From contig NZ_JAKFUM010000007.1 in the NCBI RefSeq assembly GCF_021732705.1, forward strand, positions 1 to 64,000: a stretch of DNA of 64,000 nucleotides, given 5' to 3'. Shown here piece after piece: positions 4,140 to 7,334 of the stretch. Each line of letters starts with the position of its first letter. The first letter of the stretch is position 1. The notes under the pieces were generated by a model, which worked only from the letters and a program-made list of their open reading frames with translations, was not told the DNA's origin and made no database searches. The position numbers and the translations under genes are program-made. This DNA is from Nevskia sp. (lineage in GTDB: Bacteria > Pseudomonadota > Gammaproteobacteria > Nevskiales > Nevskiaceae).

Positions 4140-5492
4140 TCACGGCGCTGGATCGTCCTGCGCAATGCCGAATCGTTCCATGCGCCGATACAGCGCCTGA
4201 CGGGACAGACCGAGCGCCTGCGCAGCGCGGCTCACCATGCCGCCGGCTTTGGCCAGGGCGGCTTCGATCGCTTCCTTGCTCGGGTCGTCCAGTGACCGGG
4301 CGACCGGGCGCGGCTGCACGACAAGGCCAAGATCGCTCGGCAGGATCACGCCGTTCTGGCACAGCAGGCGGGCGCGTTCGAGCACGTTTTTCAGTTCGCG
4401 GACGTTGCCGGGCCAGTGATGGGCGTGCAGCAGCTCGCGGGCGTCCGGGGACAATTGCACGGCGCTGTCGCGCAGGAAGTGTTCGGCGAGTGGGTCGATG
4501 TCGTCGCTGCGCTCGGTCAGCGGCGGCAGGCTCAGTTCGATCACGTTCAGGCGATAGAACAGATCCTCGCGGAAGCGGCCGTCGCGGATCATCTGTGGCA
4601 AGTCGGAGTTGGTGGCGCTGAGCACCCGCACTCTCGCCTTGCGCACCCGATTGGAGCCCAGTCGCTGGTAGTCGCCGGTTTCGAGCACGCGCAGCAGCTT
4701 CACCTGCACGGACAGCGGCAGGTTGCCGATCTCGTCCAGAAACAGCGTGCCACCTTCGGCGATCTCGAAGCGCCCTTCGCGGCTGCGATTGGAACCGGTG
4801 TAGGCCCCGGCGTCGGCACCGAACAGTTCGGCTTCCGCAAGTTCGGTCGGCAGTGCGCCGCAGTTCACCGCGATGAACGGGGCGGCCTTGACGCTGGAAT
4901 TGGCGTGCACGATCTGGGCGATGCGTTCCTTGCCGGCGCCGTTCGGGCCGGTGATCAGCACCGGCACATCGGACCGGGCGATCTGGCAGGCCATGGTGAC
5001 CACGCGCTCGGTGCTGTCGGCACCGTAGACGATGCCGCAGAGATCGAAGCGTGCAGCCAAGGCATCCCTGCGGCGGCGGCGTTCGGCACGGCGCGCAGTG
5101 GCTTCGCGCGCGGCTTCGGCCAACTCCAGCAGGTTCTCGACCGTGGCCAGCAGCTTGGCGTCGTCCCAAGGCTTGGCGAGGTAATCGGCGGCACCGGCCT
5201 TGACCAGTTCCACCGCCGTGGCGAGGTGGGTCCACGCGGTCAGCAGGATCACCGGCAGGTCCGGGTTGCGATCGCGGATCGCGCGGAACAGCGCCACCCC
5301 TTCTTCGCCGCTGGTGGTATCGGCGGTGAAGTTCATGTCGGCAATGACGAGGCTGATCGGCTCACGCGTCAACAAATCGAGCCCGGCCTGCGGCGACAAG
5401 GCCGTGACCACGCGAATGTCGTGCAGCGAAAACATCAGGCTCAGCGCGTCGAGCACGCCGGGGTTGTCGTCGATGATCAGGATCGTGCGCAT
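4140..5492 (-). CDS. NtrC-family response regulator, sigma-54 interaction type
   Basis: A 450-aa protein starting [15 protein letters not shown] at 5492; the upstream 50 residues in the track are not REC-like. The receiver domain covers ~1-120, with acidic pair D8/D9, phosphorylatable D52 (VIADMNF), T85 and K107. The AAA+ domain covers ~150-385, with Walker A GPNGAGKE (~182-189) and Walker B GTLFLDE (~248-254). The sigma-54 contact loop reads GAYTGS (~229-234) instead of GAFTGA. A Fis-type helix-turn-helix ([19 protein letters not shown]) ends the protein. It probably activates sigma-54 promoters on phosphorylation, but no histidine kinase is adjacent in the window, so partner and regulon are unknown. 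It is divergent from the riboswitch-controlled photoreceptor gene. Confidence 0.9.
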
Positions 5493-5666
5493 GGCGGGAT
5501 TATGGCGTGGCGGAGTCGAGCCGTAGCGCGCTTGCGGCTCGGTTGCCGGGGGCTCCGCGGCCGCCTTTGCACGCAATGCAGAGGTTGACGTTGCCGGGCT
5601 GGAATCCGCTGCGTTTCTGGCAACGCCAGATGTCAATTTCATTGAACACGGCTATGACAGTTTTTC

Positions 5667-5695
5667 TTGACAGTGCCGTGATGCCGTCGCAATCT
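5667..5695 (+). promoter_or_regulatory. Tentative sigma-70 promoter for the riboswitch transcript
   Basis: A perfect TTGACA -35 box at 5667-5672, 17 bases before CAATCT, which is a poor -10. It is placed about 40 bases before the start of the conserved riboswitch core. The -10 match is weak, so this is only a candidate. Confidence 0.3.
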
Positions 5696-5734
5696 TCGTT
5701 CAGCTTCGGTCCGACCGGACTGTCGGCAGCACAG

Positions 5735-5920
5735 ACAGGATGGGCGGCGAAGAGGGAATCCGGTGCGCCAGCGGTACGGCAATTCCGGGGCTGCCCCCGC
5801 AACTGTAAGCGGCGAGTTGGCGATCGATGCGTCGTGACGGACGCGCCACTGGTGAGGCTACCGGGAAGGCGGATCGCAAACGCGGACCCGCAAGCCAGGA
5901 GACCTGCCGAAGCTCTTGAT
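5735..5920 (+). promoter_or_regulatory. Cobalamin (adenosylcobalamin) riboswitch
   Basis: The conserved blocks appear in order: GGGAATCCGGTGC, AATTCCGGGGCTGCCCCCGC with ACTGTAAGC, GCCACTG, GGGAAGGCGG, and GACCCGCAAGCCAGGAGACC (the B12 box). Spacing and order fit the classical cobalamin riboswitch (Rfam RF00174 type). In known cases ligand binding shuts off the downstream gene. Here the first gene downstream is the BLUF/B12-domain protein at 6036, about 115 bases after the B12 box. No intrinsic terminator with a U tract is evident, which points to control of translation start, but this is inference. Confidence 0.93.
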
Positions 5921-6022
5921 GAACCTCGGGCGGGGTGCACCGATGGAATGACGGGCGTTGCCGGGCGTCGAGCCTGCAGCAGCCCCGCATTCCCGCGTGG
6001 TGCTTGGCAGAGGCGACCGTGC

Positions 6023-6027
6023 GGAGG
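6023..6027 (+). promoter_or_regulatory. Ribosome binding site deciding the start of the BLUF gene
   Basis: GGAGG eight bases before ATG 6036. It supports this start rather than the earlier ATG at 5958 of the ORF track, which would place coding sequence right behind the riboswitch and adds unconserved residues. Confidence 0.75.
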
Positions 6028-6035
6028 TGCACGCC

Positions 6036-7334
6036 ATGCTGCAAGCCCGTTACGCCGCAAGTTCCGAACCGACCGCCGCGACTGCCACCAGTCTCCGCGT
6101 GCCGCTCTGGACGCTGATCTATCACAGCCGTGCGGTTGCCCCGATGTCCGACGCCGCGCTGCGCGGCTTGCAGGAGCGGGCCCAGTCGCGCAATCGCGTG
6201 GAAGGGGTCACCGGCCTCGTGATCTACGACGCCGGCAGCTTCTATCAGTGCCTGGAAGGCCCGGAAGACAGCCTGGAACGCATCTGGGCCTCGGTCAGCC
6301 GCGACCCGCGCCATACCGACATCGAGCTGATGAGCCATCACCCGGTCGATGCCCGCAGCTTCGAAGGCTGGAACCTGCAGCTGTCGACCCGCGCGACGGT
6401 GGCCAGCGATGGGCTCGGCCGCGCGATGACGGCGCAGCTGGAGCTGATCGAAAAGCTGCAGCGACGGCCGCAGGATGCCGAACTGCTGCTCCATCGTCAC
6501 GGCAAGTGGCTGCAGACGCTGGGCAGCGCCGATTTCCCGCGCTTCGATCATGTGCGGGTCGCGCCGAAGCGCGCGCTCGATCCGCGCCATCTGCAGCAGG
6601 TGGTCGAGACGCTGGTGCTGCCGCGGCTCTCGGCGCTGATCGGCACCGAAGCGCCGCTGCCGATCACGCTTCCGGATACGGATGACATCGATGCACTGGT
6701 CCATCTGCTGGTGGCAGACGACCCTGCCGCCGCGATTCGCCACATGCAGTCGCTCGATACCGGCCGTCTGAGCAGCGCCGCGCGCTGCCTGCGCCTGCTG
6801 GAACCGGCGGCGCGCGCGCTCGGCGACCTGTGGCAGCACGACGACTGCACGGAAGTGGCGATGACCATCGGCCTGTGCCGCCTGCAGTCGATGCTGCATC
6901 GCCTGATGGCACCGGCCGCACGCGCCACGATCCACGGTCTGCCGTCGGTGCTGGTCGTGCCGCAGCCGGGCGAACTGCACCGCTTCGGCGCTGCGCTGGA
7001 TGCCGAGATGCTGTGGCAGGCCGGATGGCAGACGCAGTTCGAAGCACCGGCCGACGACGCCGCACTGGAGTCGCTGGTGTCGGAATCCTGGTTCGATGCC
7101 GTCGACCTGACGCTCAGCAGTTCGTTCCGACGCGAGCACTGGCTGCCGCGGATGGCGGTGACGATTGCCGAGTTGCGCCGCGCCTCGCGCAATCCGAACC
7201 TCGTGGTCCATGTCAGTGGCCGCATCTTCCACGAGCAGGCCGGCGCCGGCATCGTCATCGGCGCCGATGTCAGCAGCCGATCGGCCGCGCTGACCGGCCT
7301 GCGCATCCTCGAAGCGCTGCGTCGCAAGCACTGA
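6036..7334 (+). CDS. AppA-like photoreceptor: BLUF domain plus B12-binding/SCHIC-type domain
   Basis: A 432-aa cytosolic protein. The BLUF domain spans ~23-117 and keeps the flavin-site residues Y29, N53, Q71 and W112; the spacings 24, 18 and 41 equal those of Rhodobacter AppA (Y21, N45, Q63, W104). A helical linker follows. Residues ~255-295 (LGDLWQHDDCTEVAMTIGL) resemble the helical cap before the AppA/PpaA cobalamin-like domain. The C-terminal Rossmann-like domain (~302-430) has E313-L-H315-R-F-G318, the (D/E)xHxxG motif that supplies an axial His to B12 or, in SCHIC domains, to heme. The canonical SxL and GG motifs are weaker (LSSS, SGR), so B12 versus heme is open. There is no kinase, cyclase or DNA-binding domain, so it probably acts by protein contact. 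Blue light plus tetrapyrrole sensing is inferred from family knowledge. The gene lies behind a cobalamin riboswitch. Confidence 0.88.
   Translation: MLQARYAASSEPTAATATSLRVPLWTLIYHSRAVAPMSDAALRGLQERAQSRNRVEGVTGLVIYDAGSFYQCLEGPEDSLERIWASVSRDPRHTDIELMSHHPVDARSFEGWNLQLSTRATVASDGLGRAMTAQLELIEKLQRRPQDAELLLHRHGKWLQTLGSADFPRFDHVRVAPKRALDPRHLQQVVETLVLPRLSALIGTEAPLPITLPDTDDIDALVHLLVADDPAAAIRHMQSLDTGRLSSAARCLRLLEPAARALGDLWQHDDCTEVAMTIGLCRLQSMLHRLMAPAARATIHGLPSVLVVPQPGELHRFGAALDAEMLWQAGWQTQFEAPADDAALESLVSESWFDAVDLTLSSSFRREHWLPRMAVTIAELRRASRNPNLVVHVSGRIFHEQAGAGIVIGADVSSRSAALTGLRILEALRRKH

What the first reader, a model, noticed from the sequence alone, without database searches (positions are those of the whole stretch)
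5735..7334. Cobalamin riboswitch controlling a BLUF + B12-binding photoreceptor gene
Directly seen: a complete cobalamin riboswitch core in the leader of a 432-aa gene, and in the protein a BLUF domain with Y29, N53, Q71, W112 at exactly AppA spacing, then an AppA/PpaA-like helical cap and an ExHxxG B12/SCHIC-type domain. Family knowledge: AppA senses blue light with flavin and heme or B12 through SCHIC, and acts on photosynthesis repressors; cobalamin riboswitches normally control B12 uptake or synthesis. Inference: this cell may make the light receptor only when adenosylcobalamin is scarce, or titrate receptor supply to its own cofactor. I know of no described case where a B12 riboswitch regulates a BLUF protein, and no photosynthesis genes are visible here, so the target is open.
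Basis: partly seen in the sequence, partly recalled or inferred. Interest (0 to 1): 0.88.

Follow-up and report, generated by a model that had tools for sequence, protein, structure and literature searches.

The report
B12 riboswitch controlling a light-sensor gene
In a photosynthetic bacterium that appears unable to make vitamin B12, an RNA switch that senses B12 sits in front of the gene for a light sensor that itself appears to carry both a flavin and B12, and the same pairing recurs in several unrelated phototrophs, so the cell seems to tie its light sensing to its vitamin supply.

Summary
Window 5690-5925 (+) is a full-length cobalamin riboswitch (RF00174, 115.1 bits, E 3.9e-28) ending 110 nt before a 432-aa gene (6036-7334) with a BLUF domain (86.6 bits) and an AerR/AppA-like tetrapyrrole domain. 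The pairing is not accidental. Orthologues in the genus keep it in 3 of 4 readable loci (the fourth is a decayed copy), and it recurs in Aquibium carbonis, Roseicella frigidaeris and, degenerate, Plastoroseomonas arctica. These genes are not one clade (AU p 3e-6). The RNA is of alphaproteobacterial type, unlike this genus's btuB riboswitches, so RNA and gene probably arrived together by horizontal transfer. The open target is largely resolved: the genome has pufL/M, bch genes, PpsR and a separate AerR-like protein. Invariant His315 (AerR's cobalt ligand, displaced in AppA) favours B12 over heme. No tested genome with the riboswitch encodes CbiC/CobH. Best reading: a flavin plus B12 photoreceptor of the AppA/AerR kind acting on PpsR, its synthesis tuned, most likely repressed, by adenosylcobalamin. 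Sign of regulation, B12 binding and PpsR binding are inferred. I found no published precedent in the open-licence library searched.

The parts
5690..5925 (+). Cobalamin riboswitch aptamer (RF00174, full length, with large P6 accessory region)
   Evidence: cmscan 115.1 bits, E 3.9e-28; conserved with compensatory changes across 7 BLUF-gene riboswitches
5794..5799 (+). L5 loop CCCCCG of the aptamer (kissing-loop strand)
   Evidence: loop position from the Rfam structure line; complementary to L13; the L5-L13 kissing loop is described in PMC9600662
5926..5943 (+). P13 hairpin UCGG-GCGGGGUGCA-CCGA of the expression platform; L13 loop 5930-5939
   Evidence: GGGCGGGGUGC identical in all 7 BLUF riboswitches, absent from the genus's own btuB riboswitches
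6023..6027 (+). Shine-Dalgarno GGAGG, inside a predicted local hairpin
   Evidence: sequence; local fold -24 kcal/mol for the 56 nt around the start
6036..7334 (+). BLUF plus B12-type photoreceptor gene, 432 aa
6108..6377 (+). BLUF domain (residues 25-114)
   Evidence: PF04940 86.6 bits
6678..6905 (+). helical cap of the B12-type domain (residues 215-290; W266 aligns with AerR W94)
   Evidence: AlphaFold2 helices; alignment to AerR 7te2
6942..7331 (+). Rossmann-like tetrapyrrole-binding domain (residues 303-432) with PGExH motif
   Evidence: AerR 7te2 E 1e-9, AppA SCHIC 4heh E 4.4e-6; model pLDDT above 90 for most blocks
6978..6980 (+). codon of His315, predicted lower axial cobalt ligand (AerR His145 equivalent)
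   Evidence: alignment; invariant in 42 homologues; ligand role of His145 from PMC9144470
4140..5492 (-). divergent NtrC-type response regulator (REC, sigma-54 AAA+, Fis HTH), conserved neighbour; not shown to be part of the circuit
   Evidence: Pfam; same gene in the orthologous loci

Best explanation
The gene encodes a two-chromophore photoreceptor of the AppA/AerR kind: an N-terminal flavin (BLUF) blue-light domain joined to a C-terminal domain that binds cobalamin through His315. It most likely binds the photosynthesis repressor PpsR, encoded in the same genome, and changes its activity according to light and B12 state. Its mRNA leader is a class-I adenosylcobalamin riboswitch. When adenosylcobalamin binds, L5 kisses L13 and locks P13, and translation is most likely reduced through the hairpin that holds the Shine-Dalgarno. 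When adenosylcobalamin is scarce, more receptor is made. Because the ligand that loads the receptor also limits its synthesis, the circuit would behave as an incoherent feed-forward loop that keeps the amount of B12-loaded receptor steady in a bacterium that must import B12. Shown: the riboswitch, its conserved and recurrent placement, the domain architecture, the photosynthesis gene cluster, and absence of CbiC/CobH. Inferred: ligand identity, sign of regulation, B12 binding, and action on PpsR.
For: RF00174 at 115 bits directly upstream. Intact riboswitch before the orthologue in G005, G010 and G014, and a riboswitch before the homologue in Aquibium carbonis (121.8 bits), Roseicella frigidaeris (104.8) and Plastoroseomonas arctica (42.2). 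BLUF-less AerR-like paralogues have none within the 1.5 kb flanks held. Compensatory changes in aptamer helices. Conserved L13 complementary to L5. The C-terminal domain matches AerR better than AppA SCHIC (E 1e-9 against 4.4e-6), with H315 on AerR's His145. The AlphaFold model matches full-length AppA first, E 3.3e-23. PpsR (TIGR02040, 535 bits), AerR-like, BchG and BchI in the own genome. pufL/M in 8 of 8 genus genomes and 12 of 12 other carriers of the gene. CbiC/CobH absent from own and all riboswitch-bearing genomes. The genus's other riboswitches precede TonB B12 receptors or cobalamin genes, which fits repression by B12.
Against: No experiment. Forcing P13 did not give a consistent change in Shine-Dalgarno accessibility, and the btuB controls did not behave consistently either, so the sign is unresolved. 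Most BLUF-B12 homologues have no riboswitch, so the coupling is optional. AerR's F101 is Glu273 here. The gene lies outside the photosynthesis cluster, so action on PpsR is by analogy. The own protein has a long branch.
Confidence: 0.62

Rival explanations
1. Same parts, opposite sign: adenosylcobalamin switches the receptor ON. P13 formation would free the Shine-Dalgarno from long-range pairing with the 5' arm of P13 (UCCUCGG with CCGAGGA), so the receptor is made only when its cofactor is available.
For: In G014 and in own the unconstrained fold pairs the P13 region with the Shine-Dalgarno region, and forcing P13 raises Shine-Dalgarno accessibility (0.21 to 0.31, 0.24 to 0.45). RNAalifold places UCCUC-GAGGA pairs in the consensus of six platforms.
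Against: G010 and G005 show the reverse and the Aquibium Shine-Dalgarno stays shut in both states. A local hairpin over the Shine-Dalgarno is predicted in all six and could persist with P13 formed. Cobalamin riboswitches almost always repress (own knowledge).
Confidence: 0.2
2. The receptor senses heme (true SCHIC, as in AppA) or nothing through its C-terminal domain, and the riboswitch serves only to couple phototrophy to corrinoid or tetrapyrrole economy.
For: Full-length AppA is the best structural hit; AppA's domain binds heme (PMC9144470).
Against: AppA's heme ligand His284 is shifted by two residues from the cobalamin position, whereas H315 here sits on AerR's His145 and is invariant with E313 in 42 homologues. 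The AppA_SCHIC model stays below its cut-off.
Confidence: 0.13
3. The riboswitch is a passenger: it came with the gene by horizontal transfer and has no effect now.
For: G002 has lost most of the aptamer (21.4 bits, P4-P6 deleted) and Plastoroseomonas has a degenerate one (42.2 bits), while the genes persist. The RNA looks foreign to the genus.
Against: Own aptamer is intact (115 bits) although the protein is only about 48% identical to its genus orthologues. Pairing and the L5/L13 sequences are kept. The pairing recurs in separated branches.
Confidence: 0.08
4. The receptor acts on something other than PpsR, for example the divergent NtrC-type regulator beside which it is found throughout the genus.
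For: The regulator is the conserved divergent neighbour in the genus loci that reach that far.
Against: All 12 tested carriers outside the genus and all 8 genus genomes tested have pufL/M, and the related AppA and AerR act on PpsR/CrtJ (PMC9144470). The neighbours of the alphaproteobacterial homologues were not compared systematically.
Confidence: 0.15

Closest known systems
AppA of Rhodobacter sphaeroides (BLUF-SCHIC; PDB 4hh0, 4hh1)
   Same: BLUF plus helical cap plus Rossmann-like tetrapyrrole domain in one chain; best fold match (E 3.3e-23); found in phototrophs with PpsR
   Different: H315 at the cobalamin position instead of the displaced heme ligand His284; below the Pfam AppA_SCHIC cut-off; a B12 riboswitch in the leader
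AerR/PpaA of Rhodobacter capsulatus (PDB 7te2)
   Same: C-terminal domain closest in sequence (E 1e-9); His145 ligand and W94 cap residue conserved
   Different: no BLUF domain in AerR; F101 becomes Glu273; this genome has a separate AerR-like gene beside ppsR without a riboswitch
Cobalamin riboswitch class I (RF00174), btuB and metE leaders
   Same: complete aptamer, L5-L13 kissing loop; platform like the metE riboswitches of Roseicella and Plastoroseomonas
   Different: controls a photoreceptor, not B12 uptake, synthesis or a B12-replaceable enzyme
Photocobilins (PDB 8j2w, PMC10979010)
   Same: two chromophores, one of them cobalamin, in a photoreceptor; structural hit (E 2.1e-9)
   Different: second chromophore is a bilin, here a flavin; that paper mentions no riboswitch, flavin or BLUF
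CarH
   Same: B12-binding light receptor fold, weak profile match (21.3 bits against a cut-off of 400)
   Different: no MerR DNA-binding domain here; not a DNA-binding repressor by sequence

Membership tests
Cobalamin riboswitch (RF00174) | covariance-model score above gathering threshold over the full model | tested here: met
   115.1 against 31.5 bits, positions 1-189
Cobalamin riboswitch (RF00174) | L5 and L13 loops able to form the kissing loop with an expression platform | tested here: met
   L5 CCCCCG and L13 GCGGGG complementary; L13 conserved in 7. Formation itself not tested.
Cobalamin riboswitch (RF00174) | binds adenosylcobalamin and changes expression | not testable with these tools
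   needs probing and reporter assay
BLUF photoreceptors (PF04940) | family model above cut-off | tested here: met
   86.6 against 25 bits
BLUF photoreceptors (PF04940) | Tyr-Asn-Gln flavin network and Trp | tested here: met
   Y29, N53, Q71 in 42/42, W112 in 40/42
BLUF photoreceptors (PF04940) | binds FAD and red-shifts in blue light | not testable with these tools
   needs purified protein
AppA (BLUF-SCHIC) | BLUF joined to SCHIC-like fold | tested here: met
   full-length AppA is best structural match
AppA (BLUF-SCHIC) | AppA_SCHIC family model above cut-off | tested here: not met
   16 against 28.6 bits
AppA (BLUF-SCHIC) | heme ligand displaced from the cobalamin histidine position | tested here: not met
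   H315 at AerR His145 position
AerR/PpaA cobalamin-binding antirepressors | His145-type lower axial cobalt ligand in PGExH | tested here: met
   aligned, invariant in 42
AerR/PpaA cobalamin-binding antirepressors | W94/F101 cap | tested here: inconclusive
   W266 conserved in 37/42, F101 position is Glu273
AerR/PpaA cobalamin-binding antirepressors | binds cobalamin and PpsR/CrtJ | not testable with these tools
   PpsR gene present in genome; binding not tested

The most novel reading that the evidence does not exclude
The leader RNA is itself part of the light sensor. Light splits adenosylcobalamin to hydroxocobalamin, which removes the riboswitch's ligand and at the same time makes the form of cobalamin that AerR-type domains bind. 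One photochemical event would then both turn on synthesis of the BLUF-B12 receptor and load it, giving RNA-level and protein-level light sensing from one vitamin.
Probability: 0.18. Interest if true: 0.93.

Novelty: new variant of a known kind. Interest (0 to 1): 0.74.

Why it matters
Riboswitches for B12 are known to run B12 uptake, synthesis and B12-replaceable enzymes. Here one repeatedly stands before a light receptor that apparently uses B12 as a chromophore, which would tie photosystem control in aerobic phototrophs to a vitamin they appear to import. It makes the question of how phototrophs integrate cofactor supply with light directly testable with a leader-reporter fusion and one purified protein. 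It also points to a BLUF plus cobalamin receptor family that keeps the cobalt ligand, a possible intermediate between AerR and heme-binding AppA.

Tried and rejected
Chance or duplication from the native btuB riboswitch: rejected, because the own BLUF aptamer is 60-68% identical to most of the other BLUF and metE aptamers (51% to the degenerate Plastoroseomonas one) but 49-53% to two btuB-type aptamers of the genus, which have a different B12 box. Misplaced orphan riboswitch: rejected by conserved order in the genus. Link of the riboswitch with B12 auxotrophy: tested and not discriminating, because CbiC/CobH is absent in 7 of 7 genomes with the riboswitch but also in 20 of 24 others with the gene. 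Sign of the switch by constrained folding: inconclusive, controls failed. Intrinsic terminator or sigma-70 promoter in 5500-6200: none found by the simple scan. Viral contigs: no relatives. Plasmids: only partial, BLUF-less matches. Gammaproteobacteria at large: one further carrier in 369 genomes, without riboswitch. Family of Aquibium: no other carrier in 378 genomes. Papers on Gemmatimonas phototrophy gave nothing on a riboswitch.

Full report
CHECK OF THE OBSERVATION. The window holds a complete cobalamin riboswitch at 5690-5925 on the + strand (RF00174, 115.1 bits against a gathering score of 31.5, E 3.9e-28, all 189 model positions). It ends 110 nt before the ATG of a 432-residue gene at 6036-7334. 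Residues 25-114 are a BLUF domain (PF04940, 86.6 bits). The spacing of Y29, N53, Q71 and W112 (24, 18, 41) equals that of AppA (own knowledge of AppA numbering). The C-terminal half matches AerR (7te2, E 1e-9) better than the AppA SCHIC domain (4heh, E 4.4e-6), and Pfam's AppA_SCHIC model stays below its cut-off.

THE PROTEIN. AlphaFold2 on 42 homologues gives a good model (mean pLDDT 82; the linker is weak), whose best solved match is full-length AppA (E 3.3e-23), with AerR, photocobilin and CarH B12 domains also found. The motif PGELHRFG places His315 on His145 of AerR, the lower cobalt ligand. In AppA the heme ligand His284 is shifted by two residues (PMC9144470; alignments). E313 and H315 are invariant in all 42 homologues, as are Y29, N53 and Q71; W266, aligned with AerR's W94 cap, is kept in 37. 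By sequence this is therefore a BLUF plus cobalamin receptor, not a typical SCHIC. Binding itself is not shown. AerR's F101 is Glu273 here, and AppA's Met106 position is Leu114 in this protein.

THE COUPLING IS REAL AND RECURRENT. Orthologues at 47-48% identity exist in five other genomes of the genus, at the same locus between a divergent NtrC-type regulator and a convergent DUF885 gene where the contig reaches that far. Three (G005, G010, G014) have an intact riboswitch. In G002 the aptamer has lost its P4-P6 core and scores 21.4 bits, while both ends and the downstream hairpin remain. In G009 the contig ends before the aptamer. Farther off, the same arrangement is present in Aquibium carbonis (121.8 bits), Roseicella frigidaeris (104.8 bits) and Plastoroseomonas arctica (42.2 bits, degenerate). 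It was not found at the other homologous loci scanned with Rfam (12 sources; 17 of 19, which partly overlap). On a maximum-likelihood tree the carriers are not one clade (AU p 3e-6) and need at least five changes. Either the RNA was recruited several times or it was ancestral and often lost; the tree cannot tell which. BLUF-less AerR-like paralogues in the genus have no riboswitch within the 1.5 kb held on each side.

ORIGIN OF THE RNA. The other cobalamin riboswitches of the genus whose downstream frame I read precede TonB-type receptors, with one before cobalamin genes; three of the receptors were checked by profile and the own one is a BtuB-type B12 receptor. Those RNAs carry the box AGTCCGGAGACCGGCC or a close form, and most place P13 directly before the Shine-Dalgarno. 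The BLUF-gene RNAs, in both classes of Proteobacteria, carry AGCCAGGAGACCTGCC or a close form and a P13 hairpin with the loop GCGGGGUGC about 80 nt or more before the start codon, as do the metE riboswitches of Roseicella and Plastoroseomonas with a close variant. Identity of the own aptamer is 60-68% to most other BLUF and metE aptamers, 51% to the degenerate Plastoroseomonas one, and 49-53% to two btuB-type aptamers of the genus. The simplest reading is that RNA and gene entered this genus together from an alphaproteobacterium. This is inference from similarity, not from a dated event.

THE ORGANISM AND THE TARGET. Named relatives of the orthologue are Nevskia-like and other gammaproteobacterial MAGs. 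The genome is that of a phototroph: pufL/M lie at G000:C5:202608-204270, and about 17 kb on come an AerR-like gene, PpsR (TIGR02040, 535 bits), BchG, a second PpsR-like protein without the HTH (281 bits, above the 275 cut-off), a bacteriophytochrome-like gene and BchI. All 12 other tested genomes that carry the BLUF-B12 gene also have pufL/M, as do all 8 genus genomes tested (two of these, G012 and G016, carry only the BLUF-less paralogue). Since AppA and AerR act on PpsR/CrtJ, PpsR is the likeliest target. No genome with the riboswitch has CbiC/CobH, so they probably import B12; but most other carriers of the gene lack it too, so this does not explain which carry the RNA.

MECHANISM. L5 (CCCCCG, 5794-5799) and L13 (GCGGGGUGCA, 5930-5939) are complementary; the L5-L13 kissing loop is the known switch of this class (PMC9600662). 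Aptamer helices show compensatory changes across the seven RNAs. No intrinsic terminator is seen, and in all six related platforms the Shine-Dalgarno lies in a predicted local hairpin, which points to translational control. Forcing P13 in silico did not shift Shine-Dalgarno accessibility in one direction, and the btuB controls were no better, so the sign is not settled here. From the class, I favour repression by adenosylcobalamin. The circuit would then keep loaded receptor steady as B12 supply varies. A bolder reading, not excluded, is that light-driven loss of adenosylcobalamin relieves the RNA and supplies hydroxocobalamin, the form that AerR binds tightly (PMC9144470), to the receptor.

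NOVELTY. Searches of the full-text library for BLUF with cobalamin riboswitch, and for AppA/AerR with riboswitch, returned no description of such a pairing in titles, abstracts or the passages read. The library holds open-licence papers only, so this is not proof. Both parts belong to known kinds; their combination is new to me. I file it as a new variant of a known kind.

Noticed in passing
L144:8081-9289 (own genome, G000:C5, about 227.8 kb): A second PpsR-like protein in the photosynthesis cluster has the PAS domains but lacks the HTH (TIGR02040 281 bits, positions 2-361 of 442), next to a bacteriophytochrome-like gene; a possible decoy or adaptor.
   Followed up: partly
L098:14878-15095 and L070:14031-14259: In Roseicella and Plastoroseomonas the BLUF-B12 gene is a convergent neighbour of metE, which has its own cobalamin riboswitch; the other alphaproteobacterial loci examined show no metE nearby. 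A local copy of the metE riboswitch could be the source there.
   Followed up: partly
L007:1209-1311 (G002): Decayed riboswitch with the P4-P6 core deleted but ends and P13 kept, a natural loss-of-sensing allele before an intact gene.
   Followed up: yes
G010:C2:59237-59468 (L145:14238-14469): A further cobalamin riboswitch with a TonB-type receptor gene lies about 11 kb from pufL/M, suggesting B12 uptake placed beside the photosynthesis cluster in one relative.
   Followed up: partly
window 4140-5492 (-): Divergent NtrC-type regulator has GAYTG instead of the usual GAFTG sigma-54 contact motif.
   Followed up: no
G000:C17:7339-7614, C11:4802-5077, C5:287074-287343: Three further BLUF-domain frames of 150-188 aa in the same genome, so this is one of four BLUF proteins.
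   Followed up: no
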